In this document: positions 1 to 10,491 of the stretch, one piece after another
Layout: each line of letters starts with the position of its first letter
Numbering within the stretch: position 1 is the stretch's first letter
Virus record (IMG/VR): IMGVR_UViG_3300034196_000042
Location: 1 to 23,710 of that record
Length of the DNA stretch: 23,710 bases
Strand: one strand, 5' to 3'
Origin: a virus
Translations under genes and position numbers: made by a program
The notes under the pieces: model-generated
The model's input: only the letters and a program-made list of their open reading frames with translations
Databases searched by the model: none
Told to the model about the DNA's origin: nothing

Positions 1-302
1 ACGCAGGTATTCGGTGTAGCGAACTGCTCGTGGATCTGGCGGATGAAATCCGCCTCGCACAGTCCGTCTTTCATCGCCTTTTGCGGCGTGATGCCGGTGA
101 TGAGGCAGGCCTCCGGCTCCGGCAGGTAGTCCGCCGGCGGCTTGCAATAGATCACCAGCGGCTCGCCGATGAGGTTGAAATCCGCGTCGGTGCGAATACC
201 CGCAAACTGCGACGGCCTGTCCTTCGCCGGACTGATCCCGAAGGTCTCGTAATCGTGGAAGTAGAAGGTTTGCTGTGTGGCTTGGTTCTTTGATGTGCTC
301 AT
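1..302 (-). CDS. sbcB: Exonuclease I, N-terminal part (host gene, cut by window edge)
   Basis: The minus strand reads MSTSKNQATQQTFYFHDYE and continues as a close match to the exonuclease I N-terminus: an FxFHDYETFG block carrying the first DEDD-family acidic residues (D18, E20), then an FAGIRTD block, then a GEP-YCKP block and an LITGITPQKA block. Exonuclease I degrades single-stranded DNA 3' to 5' and acts in mismatch repair and suppression of recombination. Only about 100 of roughly 475 residues are present; the rest lies left of the window, so this is truncation by the edge and not a broken gene. It is the only clearly chromosomal gene here and marks the host side of the prophage boundary. 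The start is the ATG at 300-302. The identification is from recalled family sequence and is strong. Confidence 0.93.
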   Translation of the reverse strand, partial: MSTSKNQATQQTFYFHDYETFGISPAKDRPSQFAGIRTDADFNLIGEPLVIYCKPPADYLPEPEACLITGITPQKAMKDGLCEADFIRQIHEQFATPNTC

Positions 303-485: not shown

Positions 486-1673
486 ATGGCAATTACAGAC
501 AGCTGGCTGCGAGGCGTCAATGGTAAACCATACTCCGGTCAGAGCGAAGTCACTGACGGTGATGGGCTTGGGGTGAGGGTGTCGCCAAAGGGGTTGATCA
601 CCTTTCAGGTGCGCCATATGCGTGATGGAAAACAGGTGAGGACAACGATCGGGCGCTACCCTGCCATAACTCTCAGGGATGCCAGGATTAAAGCCTCAGA
701 GCTCAAGGCTGGCCCTGCGCAAAGTGTCGATGCCGGGGATGAACCAACGCCAGTGCAACTGCTCGATGAGTGGTTTGAGAAGTACGTGATACGGGAGTGT
801 CGAGAGAGCACCCAGAAAAACTATCGGTATACCTTCTCGTCGGTGAAGAACCGCCTGCCAGACAGACCACTCAACCAGATCACCATGGATATGTGGCTTA
901 CCTACTTCGATGCCATCAGTGAACGGGCACCAGGTGTTACCCGCTCGGTGATCACCGCGCTCAAGGCCTGTTTCAACTGGCATATTCGCCGCGGCTCAAT
1001 CCAACCACCTTGCATGATGAGTCTACGGGCCCGTGATGTGGGTGCCATGCCAAAAACCGGTAGCAGGGTGCTGACGGTGCTTGAGGTGGTCAAGATATGG
1101 CGAGCCGTTGAAGCGTGCCGTGCCGGTACCGCCAACAAGGTGATCCATCTGCTCTGCCTGGTCTATGGTTGCCGCCTATCGGAGGCGAGAACCATCAAGC
1201 GCAGCGATCTTGATTTTGACTCCATGGTATGGACTGTGCCGGCTGAGGTCAGCAAGACGGGGCGTGAAATTCGCAGGCCGATCACCACCATTGGCCGCCA
1301 GTTGTTCGAGCGAGCTGGTATGGCATCGGTTGATCCTGAGTATCTGTTCCCAGGGCAATCTGGTGGGGTTGTCGAGATCCACTCATGTAACCGACTGGTT
1401 AGCCGGCTGCGCAGCAACTTGGGGATCCCGCATTGGCGTATTCATGATGCCAGGCGCACCCTATCAACAAGGCTATCCGAACTCGGCGTATCACCGCATA
1501 TCACTGAGACGATGCTGGGTCACGCGCTGCTAGGCGTGATGGCGGTGTACAACAAACATGACTGGCTGGAGGACCAACGAGCAGCATATGAGCTATGGTG
1601 GTCGGTCCTCCAGCGCGAGTTAGGAGTGGGTGGCAGCCCGGTTGTGGCTATCAATCCACGCCATGACGTGTGA
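486..1673 (+). CDS. int: Prophage tyrosine integrase with DUF4102-type N-terminus
   Basis: A 395-aa site-specific recombinase that integrates and excises the prophage. Residues 1-75 resemble the DUF4102/arm-binding domain of P4-like integrases (DGDGLGVRVSPKG, then a GRYPAITLRDAR block). Residues 88-180 form the SAM-like core-binding domain, and 195-375 the catalytic domain. The active-site set is visible: R230 in YGCRLSEA, K257 in SKTGR, H320 and R323 in HDARR, H346 in LGHALLG and nucleophile Y355. Nothing is missing, so the enzyme should be active. It points away from sbcB into the prophage, as expected at an attachment end. Its last 54 bases overlap the convergent AlpA-like gene. The ATG at 486 begins a natural N-terminus; AGTACAA repeats lie just upstream. 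Confidence 0.95.
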   Translation: MAITDSWLRGVNGKPYSGQSEVTDGDGLGVRVSPKGLITFQVRHMRDGKQVRTTIGRYPAITLRDARIKASELKAGPAQSVDAGDEPTPVQLLDEWFEKYVIRECRESTQKNYRYTFSSVKNRLPDRPLNQITMDMWLTYFDAISERAPGVTRSVITALKACFNWHIRRGSIQPPCMMSLRARDVGAMPKTGSRVLTVLEVVKIWRAVEACRAGTANKVIHLLCLVYGCRLSEARTIKRSDLDFDSMVWTVPAEVSKTGREIRRPITTIGRQLFERAGMASVDPEYLFPGQSGGVVEIHSCNRLVSRLRSNLGIPHWRIHDARRTLSTRLSELGVSPHITETMLGHALLGVMAVYNKHDWLEDQRAAYELWWSVLQRELGVGGSPVVAINPRHDV

Positions 1674-7389: not shown

Positions 7390-7409
7390 AAGTTAAGCCA
7401 CCCAAACTA
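7390..7409. promoter_or_regulatory. Operator-like site OL-a
   Basis: AAGTTAAGCCACCCAAACTA fits the pattern NAGTT-N10-AACYN. It overlaps the -10 box and adjoining spacer of the leftward promoter, where a bound repressor would block RNA polymerase. Its leading AAGTTAAGC is the exact reverse complement of the end of OL-b. Confidence 0.55.
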
Positions 7410-7418
7410 AAAAGTAAA
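7390..7418 (-). promoter_or_regulatory. Predicted early-left (PL-like) promoter
   Basis: On the minus strand a TTTACT (-35, plus coordinates 7413-7418) is followed after exactly 17 bases by TAACTT (-10, 7390-7395). The predicted transcript starts near 7383 and enters the DUF4406 gene at 7357. The -10 box is embedded in GCTTAACTT; the rightward promoter of cro has GCTTAACCT at the same position with the same 17-base spacer. Repressor-like sites overlap and flank it. The call is from pattern only. Confidence 0.6.
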
Positions 7419-7423
7419 GCCTT

Positions 7424-7443
7424 AAGTTGTGATTGCTTAACTT
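7424..7443. promoter_or_regulatory. Operator-like site OL-b
   Basis: AAGTTGTGATTGCTTAACTT is a gapped palindrome with AAGTT/AACTT arms. It matches the cro-proximal site (10537-10556) at 16 of 20 positions and lies just upstream of the -35 box of the leftward promoter. Its centre is 34 bases from that of OL-a. Confidence 0.6.
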
Positions 7444-7451
7444 CATGAGTG

Positions 7452-7478
7452 TAAAAAAGCCCACCGTGCTGGTGGGCT
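7452..7478 (-). terminator. Rho-independent terminator for the lysogeny (minus-strand) transcript
   Basis: Read on the minus strand, GCCCACC, loop AGCAC, GGTGGGC (plus coordinates 7459-7477) forms a perfect 7-bp GC-rich stem followed by six T (7453-7458). It faces leftward, after the stop of the DUF4041/GIY-YIG gene at 7538 and before the early-left promoter, so it separates the lysogenic transcript from the lytic left operon. Confidence 0.88.
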
Positions 7479-7537
7479 ATTCTGAGCTCTTGGTAAAGCG
7501 TGTGGCTACGCAAAAATAATTCGGTAGGTGGTCAAAG

Positions 7538-9130
7538 CTAAGCTTCCGCCATCACCATGACTGATGCTTGTTGCTTTTTAGCTACACTTTGCGTCTCGCG
7601 GTATTCTGCCGCCTCTGCCTTCATGGTCCAGTGAATCTCGTTCAGGCCACGCTCCTCAACAGCTTGTCGAATGTCAGTCAGGGGCAGGCGGAAGAACTCC
7701 TTGCGTGGGTTTACCTTGTTAACCGAGTTTTGCTCGAAGGTGCGGTGCAACTCCTTTTCCAGCGATGGAGCGTCATCACTGTAGATCATGGCGTGTACAT
7801 CAAAATCAAACGGCACTGAAGCATCACTTAACTCCTTTACTCGATCCAGTGGCTCCAGACGTCTGGTCATACCTACCTTGAATATATTCTCCCCAAAACT
7901 GCCGATGTTGCTGATTACATAGACGTGCCCGCGCCTGGTCTGTTGCGCCATGGAAATAGCGCGCTGCCCTCTAGCTTCAGCTTCCAGCAGCTTAGCTTCA
8001 AGTTCAGCAAGTTGAGCCTCAAACTGTTGCCGCTGTTCGTCGTTGGCTGTGCTGAGCTCTTGTCTGGCCTTCTCTAAGGCCTCTTGCAGTATCCGCTCTT
8101 CCTTCTCCACCTCTTTGATTGCCCTGTCTATTTCCCTTTGGGCTCGGTCTTCCTCCCTAATTTGCTCGCGGATCTGCCGCTGCTCCTCGCGCTCTTTAAG
8201 TTGTATTTCGTGGGTGGCAACTGCCCACTTAAGTTCATCCAGTCTGGCGTCGAGGTATTCTTGGTTTATTCTGGCGTTGCGAAATGAGGTTCCGTTATGA
8301 TTAACCAATGCAAAAGCATCAATTATTTCTTGCTTTATCTTGCCGTAATTATCGTGTTTTACCTTGGCAAGTGCTGAGTCAGTTTTTCCGTTGAATGCAT
8401 CTACAACTAAATGTATCGCATACCTCTTGCGATACGGCTCAACATAATCGCAATCACCAGCAAGCCTATTCTTAACTAATGTACGTATACGATTGCGTGC
8501 CGCTTTTAGTTGTTCGCCAGCCTCTGTGTAACTGTACTCCTGAGCCAGATCATCCAACACCGCATGATTGGGGATTATATATTCATCCTCATATCCCTTT
8601 ATGGTATTTCGCATTGCTCTAATCATTGAATCATAAAGGTCGGCGTTGCTTTTCGCTTCTAGGGCTGAGCCGGCTATCTCCTCAGCTTGCTTTTTCGCGT
8701 AGTCAGTGATTCTGATTGCTTCAGCTCTACTGTCCCGCTCGATTTGCTCAGCTTTGTCCTTGGATGTTCTCAGCAGAGATCTAGCCTCTGCTCGTAACGA
8801 ATTCGCTTCATCACGAATTCTATTAGCCTCAACCTCAGCACGCTTTGCAGCTTCCGCCATTTCACGGTCAGCCAGATCCCTAGCTAGATCAGCCTCCAGC
8901 AAGAGCAAGCGAGCCCGTTCCTCTGCTGTTGCCAATAAGTCATTAATATGTGACTCCATATCGGTTATTGGCTTGTATTTTCTATCAAGTTGTTCTTTAG
9001 CTTCTATCTCTTTAGCTAAAGCTTCCTGCAATAGTTGCAGATCTCGCGCTATTTTATTTTTTTTCCTATTCAATAGGAACGCAATTACATAAGGAGCAAA
9101 AAAAACTAACAGCGCAATAAAAACTTCCAT
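7538..9130 (-). CDS. Membrane-anchored DUF4041 / GIY-YIG (T5orf172) nuclease, putative phage-defence protein
   Basis: A 530-aa protein. Residues 2-20 are one membrane-spanning segment, followed by NRKKNK, which suggests a cytoplasmic body. Residues 25-165 are long coiled coil. Residues about 165-305 (SNADLYDSMIRAMRNTIKGY, then a YEDEYIIP stretch) fit DUF4041. Residues 305-395 are a highly charged helix, and 400-490 a T5orf172/GIY-YIG domain: HVYVISN, FKVGMTRR (417-424), a probable catalytic Glu in SLEKELH (E458) and RKEFFRLP. This architecture resembles SNIPE, a membrane-bound nuclease reported to cut incoming phage DNA; I recall that and have not checked it. It has its own terminator, is AT-richer than its neighbours and lies on the lysogeny side, so lysogenic expression is likely. 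AGAGG lies six bases before the ATG. Confidence 0.88.
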   Translation of the reverse strand: MEVFIALLVFFAPYVIAFLLNRKKNKIARDLQLLQEALAKEIEAKEQLDRKYKPITDMESHINDLLATAEERARLLLLEADLARDLADREMAEAAKRAEVEANRIRDEANSLRAEARSLLRTSKDKAEQIERDSRAEAIRITDYAKKQAEEIAGSALEAKSNADLYDSMIRAMRNTIKGYEDEYIIPNHAVLDDLAQEYSYTEAGEQLKAARNRIRTLVKNRLAGDCDYVEPYRKRYAIHLVVDAFNGKTDSALAKVKHDNYGKIKQEIIDAFALVNHNGTSFRNARINQEYLDARLDELKWAVATHEIQLKEREEQRQIREQIREEDRAQREIDRAIKEVEKEERILQEALEKARQELSTANDEQRQQFEAQLAELEAKLLEAEARGQRAISMAQQTRRGHVYVISNIGSFGENIFKVGMTRRLEPLDRVKELSDASVPFDFDVHAMIYSDDAPSLEKELHRTFEQNSVNKVNPRKEFFRLPLTDIRQAVEERGLNEIHWTMKAEAAEYRETQSVAKKQQASVMVMAEA

Positions 9131-9171
9131 TATTTACCTCTCTCAATATATCCCATTTCTCTATTCCTTTT

Positions 9172-9600
9172 TTATTTTAAGGCGTTGATGCCTATGGTTG
9201 CCCCTACACTGAATACTTGCGATACCAGTGTGCTGATGATCTCAACCCCGCCTTGTTTTACTGCATCCTTGATCCGTTCGCCGAGCGGGGTGGTCAGGCT
9301 ATCCGGTATCACCTTGAGGGTTTCAAGGCCCTTGGCGGTGAGGACTGCTTTAGCTAATCCGGATTTTGGGTGAACCGTTGCTCTGATGTAGCCGCTTTCG
9401 ACCAGCCAATCCAATGACGCCATCACCAGCGCCGCCTGCGGGGTTAATTCAGTGCCGGTAAATCCATCAACTTCAAAAACCAGCCCTTCACCTGTATATT
9501 TGACCAGTGGTAAGGTGATAGGGAGCGGGAATGCCTCGTAGAGCAAGGCAAAGGTTTGCCCGACGATTGCATCAAATTGTTCAATATTGGAGGTTGTCAT
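9172..9600 (-). CDS. Hypothetical phage protein, 142 aa, lysogeny region
   Basis: Not recognised beyond a sense of being a recurrent phage hypothetical. It starts MTTSNIEQFDAIVGQTFALL; residues about 60-115 (LTPQAALVMASLDWLVESGY then LAKAVLTAKGLETL) have the helix-turn-helix-strand look of a winged helix, though no clear HTH signature is present. The C-terminus (LGERIKDAVKQGGVEIISTLVSQVFSVGATIGINAL) is an amphipathic to hydrophobic stretch that could touch a membrane. The frame stays open upstream, but AGGGGA just before the ATG at 9598-9600 supports this start. That ATG overlaps a divergent ATG on the other strand. It lies between the repressor and the DUF4041/GIY-YIG gene, 41 bases from the latter, and may work with it. 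Confidence 0.75.
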   Translation of the reverse strand: MTTSNIEQFDAIVGQTFALLYEAFPLPITLPLVKYTGEGLVFEVDGFTGTELTPQAALVMASLDWLVESGYIRATVHPKSGLAKAVLTAKGLETLKVIPDSLTTPLGERIKDAVKQGGVEIISTLVSQVFSVGATIGINALK

Positions 9601-9844
9601 GCCATCCCCTGAATTTATGAAAAATGAAGAAAAAGCGGCGTTGGTGGAGGAGTTTAAAAGCGTGATTAGACGCCAAGGGGCGCAAACGATGGACTTTATC
9701 AGGGCGAGGGCGTACTGGGAGACCAAGCTGCCGACTGTGCCGGCAGAGATATTGGCCTCCGCACTGGCTGAGGCCCTGAGCTATGCAATACCCGGTGTTA
9801 TTACCGATGAGGTTCGGCGCATCCATCGCGATCTGCTCCGTTAG
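9599..9844 (+). CDS. Possible small gene on the opposite strand of the lysogeny transcript, 81 aa
   Basis: The frame encodes MPSPEFMKNEEKAALVEEFK and ends with TDEVRRIHRDLLR. It is mostly helical, charged and Ala-rich, with protein-like composition, and I do not recognise it. GGAGG stands six bases before the ATG at 9599. This ATG overlaps, in opposite sense, the ATG of the 142-aa gene, and the stop overlaps the 3' end of the repressor gene by three bases, so it fills exactly the gap between two minus-strand genes. That fit, the ribosome site and the absence of a better minus-strand frame argue for a real gene. Against it: it is short and antisense to a repressor transcript. Confidence 0.55.
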   Translation: MPSPEFMKNEEKAALVEEFKSVIRRQGAQTMDFIRARAYWETKLPTVPAEILASALAEALSYAIPGVITDEVRRIHRDLLR

Positions 9845-10491
9845 CGGCGACGTCTGCGGCGGCGGTGTTCCACCATGGTGCCGATGATTTGAATGGGCTG
9901 GCGATCTGATCGCATGGTGGCGTAGTCGTCATTGAGCGGGGCCAGCTCGAAGATCTCTTTGCCGTCTTCGCTGTAGCCGCGGGGGCGGTACTTCTTGAAG
10001 GTGGCTTCTTCTTCGCCGTTCTTGGCAACTACGAAGTCCCCTGGGTGTAGCGGTTCATCCGGATCGATCAGCACCAGATCGCCCTCGGTGAATTCCGGCT
10101 CCATGGAGTTACCCCGGATCACGATGGCAAAGGCGCGGTCACCCAGATCGAGATCGGTGCTGATGTAGAGCATGTTGCCGTCGCACTCGCGGATCTCGTT
10201 GGGCTCTGTCCATACCCCGGCCTGCACATAGCTGATCACCGGGATACGGTGAGTGTCTGGTAATGCTATCTCCATATTCTGACCAGAAGGGTCACCCTTT
10301 CCATCCATTAACCAAAACACAGAGACAGAGAGCGCCTTCGCCAGCTCGGAAAGGTTCTTGGCGTCAGGGGTGTATACCCCATTCTCCCACTGTGAAATGG
10401 ATGCCTTGTTTGCGCCTATTTTGTCGCCGAGTTGCTGCTGGGTCATTTTCAGGCGCGACCTAGACAGCTTGATGCGTTCTCCGATGTTCAT
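9841..10491 (-). CDS. cI: CI/LexA-type prophage repressor with self-cleavage domain
   Basis: A 216-aa repressor. Residues 4-62 are an XRE-type HTH (RIKLSRSRLKMTQQQLGDKI, then ASISQWENGVYTP). Residues 83-207 are an S24 peptidase domain: cleavage pair A91-G92 in SYVQAGVW, catalytic S129 in RGNSMEP and the catalytic Lys in EATFKKY (K166 or K167). DNA damage and RecA should trigger self-cleavage and induction. The C-terminus EHRRRRRRR is unusually basic. The gene is divergent from cro, its start codon adjoins an operator-like site, and it should bind the five sites listed here to hold both early promoters off. Downstream on the same strand lie the 142-aa gene and the DUF4041/GIY-YIG gene. Confidence 0.95.
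   Translation of the reverse strand: MNIGERIKLSRSRLKMTQQQLGDKIGANKASISQWENGVYTPDAKNLSELAKALSVSVFWLMDGKGDPSGQNMEIALPDTHRIPVISYVQAGVWTEPNEIRECDGNMLYISTDLDLGDRAFAIVIRGNSMEPEFTEGDLVLIDPDEPLHPGDFVVAKNGEEEATFKKYRPRGYSEDGKEIFELAPLNDDYATMRSDRQPIQIIGTMVEHRRRRRRR

What the first reader, a model, noticed from the sequence alone, without database searches (positions are those of the whole stretch)
7538..9130. Prophage-carried membrane-anchored DUF4041/GIY-YIG nuclease: likely anti-phage defence
Seen: one N-terminal membrane span, about 140 residues of coiled coil, a DUF4041-like region, a charged helix and a complete-looking T5orf172/GIY-YIG domain (VYVISN, FKVGMTRR, E458). The gene is on the repressor strand, AT-richer than its neighbours, and ends at the only strong terminator in this region. 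Known: T5orf172/GIY-YIG domains are nucleases; as I recall, a membrane-bound DUF4041/GIY-YIG protein called SNIPE cuts incoming phage DNA at the membrane. Inference: this is a lysogenic-conversion defence gene that blocks DNA entry of other phages. How it spares its own phage DNA is open; the modification genes of the left operon are candidates.
Basis: partly seen in the sequence, partly recalled or inferred. Interest (0 to 1): 0.8.

Follow-up and report, generated by a model that had tools for sequence, protein, structure and literature searches.

The report
SNIPE anti-phage nuclease in Aeromonas prophage
A virus sleeping in an Aeromonas chromosome carries, in a swappable cargo slot beside its repressor gene, a clear relative of SNIPE, a known membrane-tethered enzyme that cuts the DNA of other viruses as they inject it; this is a new carrier of a published system, not a new kind of system.

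Summary
ORF 7538-9130(-) encodes an intact 530-aa protein with one N-terminal hydrophobic span, a long helix, DUF4041, a charged helix and a C-terminal T5orf172/GIY-YIG nuclease domain. It matches PADLOC PD-Lambda-1 (399 bits) and phrog_1847 (434 bits). PD-Lambda-1 was renamed SNIPE in PMC13190303. It is 35% identical to a phage copy carrying every checked published SNIPE residue (E414 = E458 here).

Added here: (1) The window is an Aeromonas prophage flanked by host sbcB; siblings with 96-98% identical terminase and portal have contractile tails. (2) The gene is a single-gene cargo cassette: homology to siblings stops at 9147 and resumes at the terminator at 7483, and siblings carry unrelated genes there. 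(3) In 18 of 46 SNIPE clusters a repressor gene lies within 500 bp upstream on the same strand, so this carriage recurs.

Activity and expression here are untested; two 98.5% identical Streptococcus homologues differed completely (PMC12322248). New member of a known kind.

The parts
7538..9130 (-). SNIPE-family gene (PD-Lambda-1): N-terminal membrane anchor, long helix, DUF4041, charged helix, T5orf172/GIY-YIG nuclease
9068..9127 (-). predicted single transmembrane span, residues 2-21, followed by RKKNK (positive inside, so N-out/C-in inferred)
8243..8410 (-). DUF4041 region (residues 241-296)
   Evidence: modelled as helical with pLDDT above 90
7655..7930 (-). T5orf172/GIY-YIG domain (residues 401-492) with Y404, K418, G420, R423, E458, N474
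7484..9146 (-). cargo cassette: the stretch not shared with sibling prophages, containing only the SNIPE gene
7454..7483 (-). intrinsic terminator closing the cargo slot; the same stem and T-run is kept at the slot end in relatives L195, L119, L102 (96% identity) and lies in the aligned flank of L098, L094, L101
9172..9600 (-). phrog_2266 gene, conserved neighbour in siblings that lack SNIPE, so not part of the system
9841..10491 (-). CI-type repressor (HTH + S24), upstream on the same strand; probable source of transcription of the slot in the lysogen (inferred)
   Evidence: homologous CI lies 0-27 bp upstream of SNIPE in Aeromonas-type loci L009, L013-L015
1..301 (-). host DNA: start of Aeromonas sbcB (exonuclease I); shows the window is an integrated prophage
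486..1673 (+). integrase, 81% identical to one at the same chromosomal site in A. caviae

Best explanation
The gene is a prophage-borne SNIPE (PD-Lambda-1) homologue in a temperate, probably contractile-tailed Aeromonas phage. In the lysogen it would be transcribed from the repressor strand and sit in the inner membrane by its N-terminal span, with DUF4041 and the GIY-YIG nuclease in the cytoplasm. When another phage, most likely a siphovirus, injects, DUF4041 would bind the incoming DNA and the tape measure protein, and the nuclease would cut the DNA at the membrane. The resident prophage is spared because SNIPE acts only on DNA being injected: the prophage is already inside, induced copies are not attacked, and at first infection no SNIPE is present. 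Shown here: architecture, family membership, intact catalytic residues, cargo position, sibling tail type. Inferred from PMC13190303: membrane location, tape-measure recognition, cutting during entry. Not shown by anyone for this protein: expression and defence.
For: PADLOC PD-Lambda-1 399 bits over residues 6-522; Pfam DUF4041 and T5orf172 above cut-off; 35% identity to PhiR26_1 PD-lambda-1, which carries all nine checked SNIPE residues at their published numbers; SNIPE Y360/R379/E414/N430 align with Y404/R423/E458/N474 here. Experiments on SNIPE: membrane location, need for DUF4041 and E414, cleavage during injection, no effect on induced prophage (PMC13190303). A second group saw more than 3-log resistance from a Streptococcus PD-Lambda-1 (PMC12322248). 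Cargo slot with unrelated occupants in siblings. Contractile tail in siblings with 96-98% identical TerL and portal.
Against: No experiment on this protein. The N-terminal half is not alignable with confidence to E. coli SNIPE (the tblastn match covers residues 239-516 only), so its host partner and target phages are unknown. One of two 98.5% identical Streptococcus homologues was inactive. No consensus promoter was found on the repressor strand at the slot, and a converging small gene lies between CI and the slot.
Confidence: 0.85

Rival explanations
1. A free-standing GIY-YIG homing endonuclease that promotes its own spread between phages, not a defence gene.
For: T5orf172/GIY-YIG domains occur in many small phage proteins that may be mobile nucleases, and the gene is AT-rich cargo.
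Against: N-terminal membrane anchor plus long helix plus DUF4041, kept in homologues; the full-length profile match is to a tested defence protein; the slot holds unrelated genes in siblings, as expected for a cargo site rather than a homing site.
Confidence: 0.05
2. A SNIPE homologue that is silent or inactive in this phage (no lysogenic expression, or lost specificity).
For: Homologues 98.5% identical can differ fully in activity (PMC12322248); no consensus promoter upstream on its strand.
Against: Intact ORF, good Shine-Dalgarno and all conserved residues kept; the terminator is preserved and other Aeromonas copies sit 0-27 bp behind CI.
Confidence: 0.1
3. A superinfection-exclusion protein aimed mainly at close relatives of its own phage (contractile-tailed) rather than at siphoviruses.
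For: 16 of 37 SNIPE clusters with a record examined come from records with sheath or baseplate J; the E. coli carrier PhiR26_1 has a tape measure 99.4% identical to that of lambda, so carriers can belong to the targeted class.
Against: E. coli SNIPE stopped no BASEL myovirus or podovirus (PMC13190303); relatives with the same immunity are already blocked by CI.
Confidence: 0.15

Closest known systems
SNIPE / PD-Lambda-1 of E. coli (PMC13190303, PMC9519451; copy in phage PhiR26_1)
   Same: Order of domains, one N-terminal span, DUF4041, GIY-YIG residues Y/R/E/N; carried by a temperate phage
   Different: 35% identity; N-terminal half diverged and longer; K266 and K301 here stand where E. coli SNIPE has E223 and W257, positions where E223K and W257R strengthened defence against Bas14 (K or R at 301 in 34 of 36 sequences of this clade)
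phrog_1847-type proteins in P2-like phages vB_EcoM-813R9 and KP12 and in Synechococcus phage Ssp-JY37
   Same: Full-length match, 48-50% identity; in 813R9 (Peduoviridae) the gene lies about 20 bp behind the CI-type repressor
   Different: Annotated as hypothetical or chromosome segregation ATPase; different repressor and integration module
PD-Lambda-1 of Streptococcus thermophilus (PMC12322248)
   Same: Same family, tested defence against streptococcal phages
   Different: Chromosomal, Gram-positive host; homologues differ in activity

Membership tests
SNIPE (PD-Lambda-1) | Match to the PD-Lambda-1 family profile over most of the protein | tested here: met
   399 bits, residues 6-522
SNIPE (PD-Lambda-1) | DUF4041 domain | tested here: met
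   60.7 bits against cut-off 27
SNIPE (PD-Lambda-1) | GIY-YIG nuclease with the catalytic glutamate (E414 in E. coli) | tested here: met
   T5orf172 59.6 bits; E458 aligns with E414, invariant in 36
SNIPE (PD-Lambda-1) | N-terminal membrane anchor | tested here: met
   Hydropathy span at residues 2-21; prediction only, not a topology assay
SNIPE (PD-Lambda-1) | Cleaves phage DNA during injection and protects cells | not testable with these tools
   Needs plating and DNA-entry assays
SNIPE (PD-Lambda-1) | Binds tape measure protein and, for lambda, ManYZ | not testable with these tools
   The N-terminal region is the most diverged part (column identity 0.34-0.42 against 0.8 for the nuclease)
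Prophage cargo (moron) | Extra gene absent from sibling phages at the same site, with unrelated occupants there | tested here: met
Homing endonuclease | Insertion at a defined recognition site, spread by gene conversion | tested here: inconclusive
   The same slot holds unrelated genes in siblings, which argues against it; no transfer test possible

The most novel reading that the evidence does not exclude
This phage group keeps a dedicated single-cassette slot between a CI-linked gene and a conserved terminator that is refilled with different exclusion factors (SNIPE in one phage; small lipoproteins or other membrane and unknown proteins in siblings), and SNIPE is favoured there because a contractile-tailed carrier can deploy it against siphoviruses without hindering its own spread.
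Probability: 0.3. Interest if true: 0.5.

Novelty: new member of a known kind. Interest (0 to 1): 0.33.

Why it matters
SNIPE was described in 2026 in E. coli. A prophage copy in Aeromonas, with sibling phages that differ at that slot, gives a natural with/without comparison and a clean test of whether phage-carried SNIPE protects the lysogen and which tail types it recognises. The slot also points to further untested exclusion genes.

Tried and rejected
Methylation as self-protection: not needed given the published mechanism. phrog_2266 as a partner of SNIPE: rejected, it is present in siblings without SNIPE. Structure from a single sequence failed (pLDDT 56.5). Foldseek against PDB gave no match at E <= 0.001 (whole-model search swamped by long helices); BFVD gave mostly T5orf172/GIY-YIG-type proteins. 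No solved structure by sequence. The A. caviae KAM479 element at sbcB shares only the integrase. Family searches with wrong L101 coordinates failed and were repeated.

Full report
Observation. The ORF at 7538-9130(-) is intact, 530 aa, with a Shine-Dalgarno. It is the most AT-rich of the genes measured and is followed by the strongest terminator-like site of the region.

Identity. PADLOC gives PD-Lambda-1 with 399 bits over nearly the whole length, and PHROGs gives phrog_1847 with 434 bits. PD-Lambda-1 was renamed SNIPE (PMC13190303). The PD-lambda-1 protein of Escherichia phage PhiR26_1 carries all nine checked SNIPE residues at the published numbers (E223, N250, L253, W257, E264, K305, I308, T319, E414), so it is the published protein or very close to it. 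The window protein is 35% identical to it, and Y360/R379/E414/N430 align with Y404/R423/E458/N474. These residues do not vary among 36 sequences. Conservation falls from the nuclease (0.80) over DUF4041 (0.70) to the N-terminus (0.34-0.42), the same trend the SNIPE authors report.

Structure. AlphaFold2 with 36 sequences gives mean pLDDT 79 but pTM 0.41, so domains are credible and their relative placement is not.

Setting. Window bases 1-301 match the start of Aeromonas sbcB (89% to A. caviae over 310 bases) and the integrase is 81% identical to one at the same site in A. caviae, so this is an Aeromonas prophage; the record is a 23.7-kb fragment. TerL, portal and head genes are Mano-like. Siblings with TerL 97-98% and portal 96% identity have tail sheath and baseplate V/W/J, and the one in Aeromonas genome G100 also has a tape measure 58% identical to that of myophage Mano. 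The window lacks its own tail genes, so a contractile tail is a strong inference, not a reading.

Cargo slot. In siblings, the interval between CI and the deoxyribosyltransferase gene holds different genes: phrog_2266 plus two small lipoprotein-like proteins (L119), phrog_2266 plus a secreted-type and a zinc-ribbon membrane protein (L102, L195), one 194-aa lipoprotein-like protein (L093, L094, L095, L098), a 267-aa protein (L100), three genes including DUF2939 (L101), a nucleoid-associated protein plus another gene and insertion elements (L096). DNA identity with L195 and L102 stops at 9147, 25 bp past the phrog_2266 stop, and resumes at 7483-7480, the terminator. The exchanged unit is thus the SNIPE gene alone. 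In other records, 18 of 46 SNIPE clusters have a repressor gene within 500 bp upstream on the same strand, and 22 within 3 kb, found with only four repressor queries, so these are lower bounds. In loci L009 (A. salmonicida) and L013-L015 a relative of this very CI lies 0-27 bp before SNIPE.

Mechanism. By published experiment, SNIPE is inner-membrane anchored, needs DUF4041 and E414, cuts lambda DNA during injection, and does not affect lambda after prophage induction (PMC13190303). No BASEL myovirus or podovirus was affected, most siphoviruses were at least weakly. The same scheme is the best account here. PhiR26_1, a carrier, has a tape measure 99.4% identical to that of lambda, so carriers need not be of an untargeted tail type. 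Of 50 carrier records, 27 have sheath or baseplate J; by cluster 16 of 37. Records may be partial, so the rest are not shown to be siphoviruses.

Limits. Expression, topology and defence of this protein are untested. Activity cannot be assumed from homology: of two 98.5% identical Streptococcus homologues one was inactive (PMC12322248). The alignment of K266 and K301 with E223 and W257 rests on a 35% identity pair; it is gap-free locally but remains a suggestion.

Verdict. A new, well-supported member of the SNIPE family in a new prophage setting; ordinary in kind.

Noticed in passing
window 9598-9601: The phrog_2266 gene (9172-9600, -) and an 80-aa gene (9599-9844, +) start at overlapping ATG codons (CATG), each with a Shine-Dalgarno inside the other's coding sequence; the + gene also overlaps the CI stop tail to tail. 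A similar head-to-head arrangement is seen in L119, L102 and L195.
   Followed up: partly
window 7391-7453 and CI N-terminus (9841-10491): Between relatives the DNA-binding N-terminal part of CI and the operator-like repeats before the left operon differ together while the CI C-terminus is kept: an immunity swap.
   Followed up: no
L119 11359-12494; L094 10856-11440; L102 11364-12384; L101 10654-12733; L096 10676-12780: Other occupants of the same slot are mostly small lipoprotein-like, membrane or unknown proteins with few Pfam hits: candidate exclusion factors.
   Followed up: partly
window 1-301: Prophage inserted directly before the start codon of host sbcB (exonuclease I), a site also used by a different element with a related integrase in A. 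caviae KAM479. Effect on sbcB expression unknown.
   Followed up: partly
L008 7494-9023 (phage ES18 gene 19): A DUF4041 protein listed as a possible moron lies two genes before the tape measure gene of a Salmonella phage with lambda-like tail-tip genes, a different location from the repressor slot.
   Followed up: no
G068:C9:91045-93136 and G069:C3:15558-17649: Two Aeromonas genomes carry two different DUF4041/GIY-YIG genes side by side (matches at residues 239-518 of the query, 37-44% identity).
   Followed up: no
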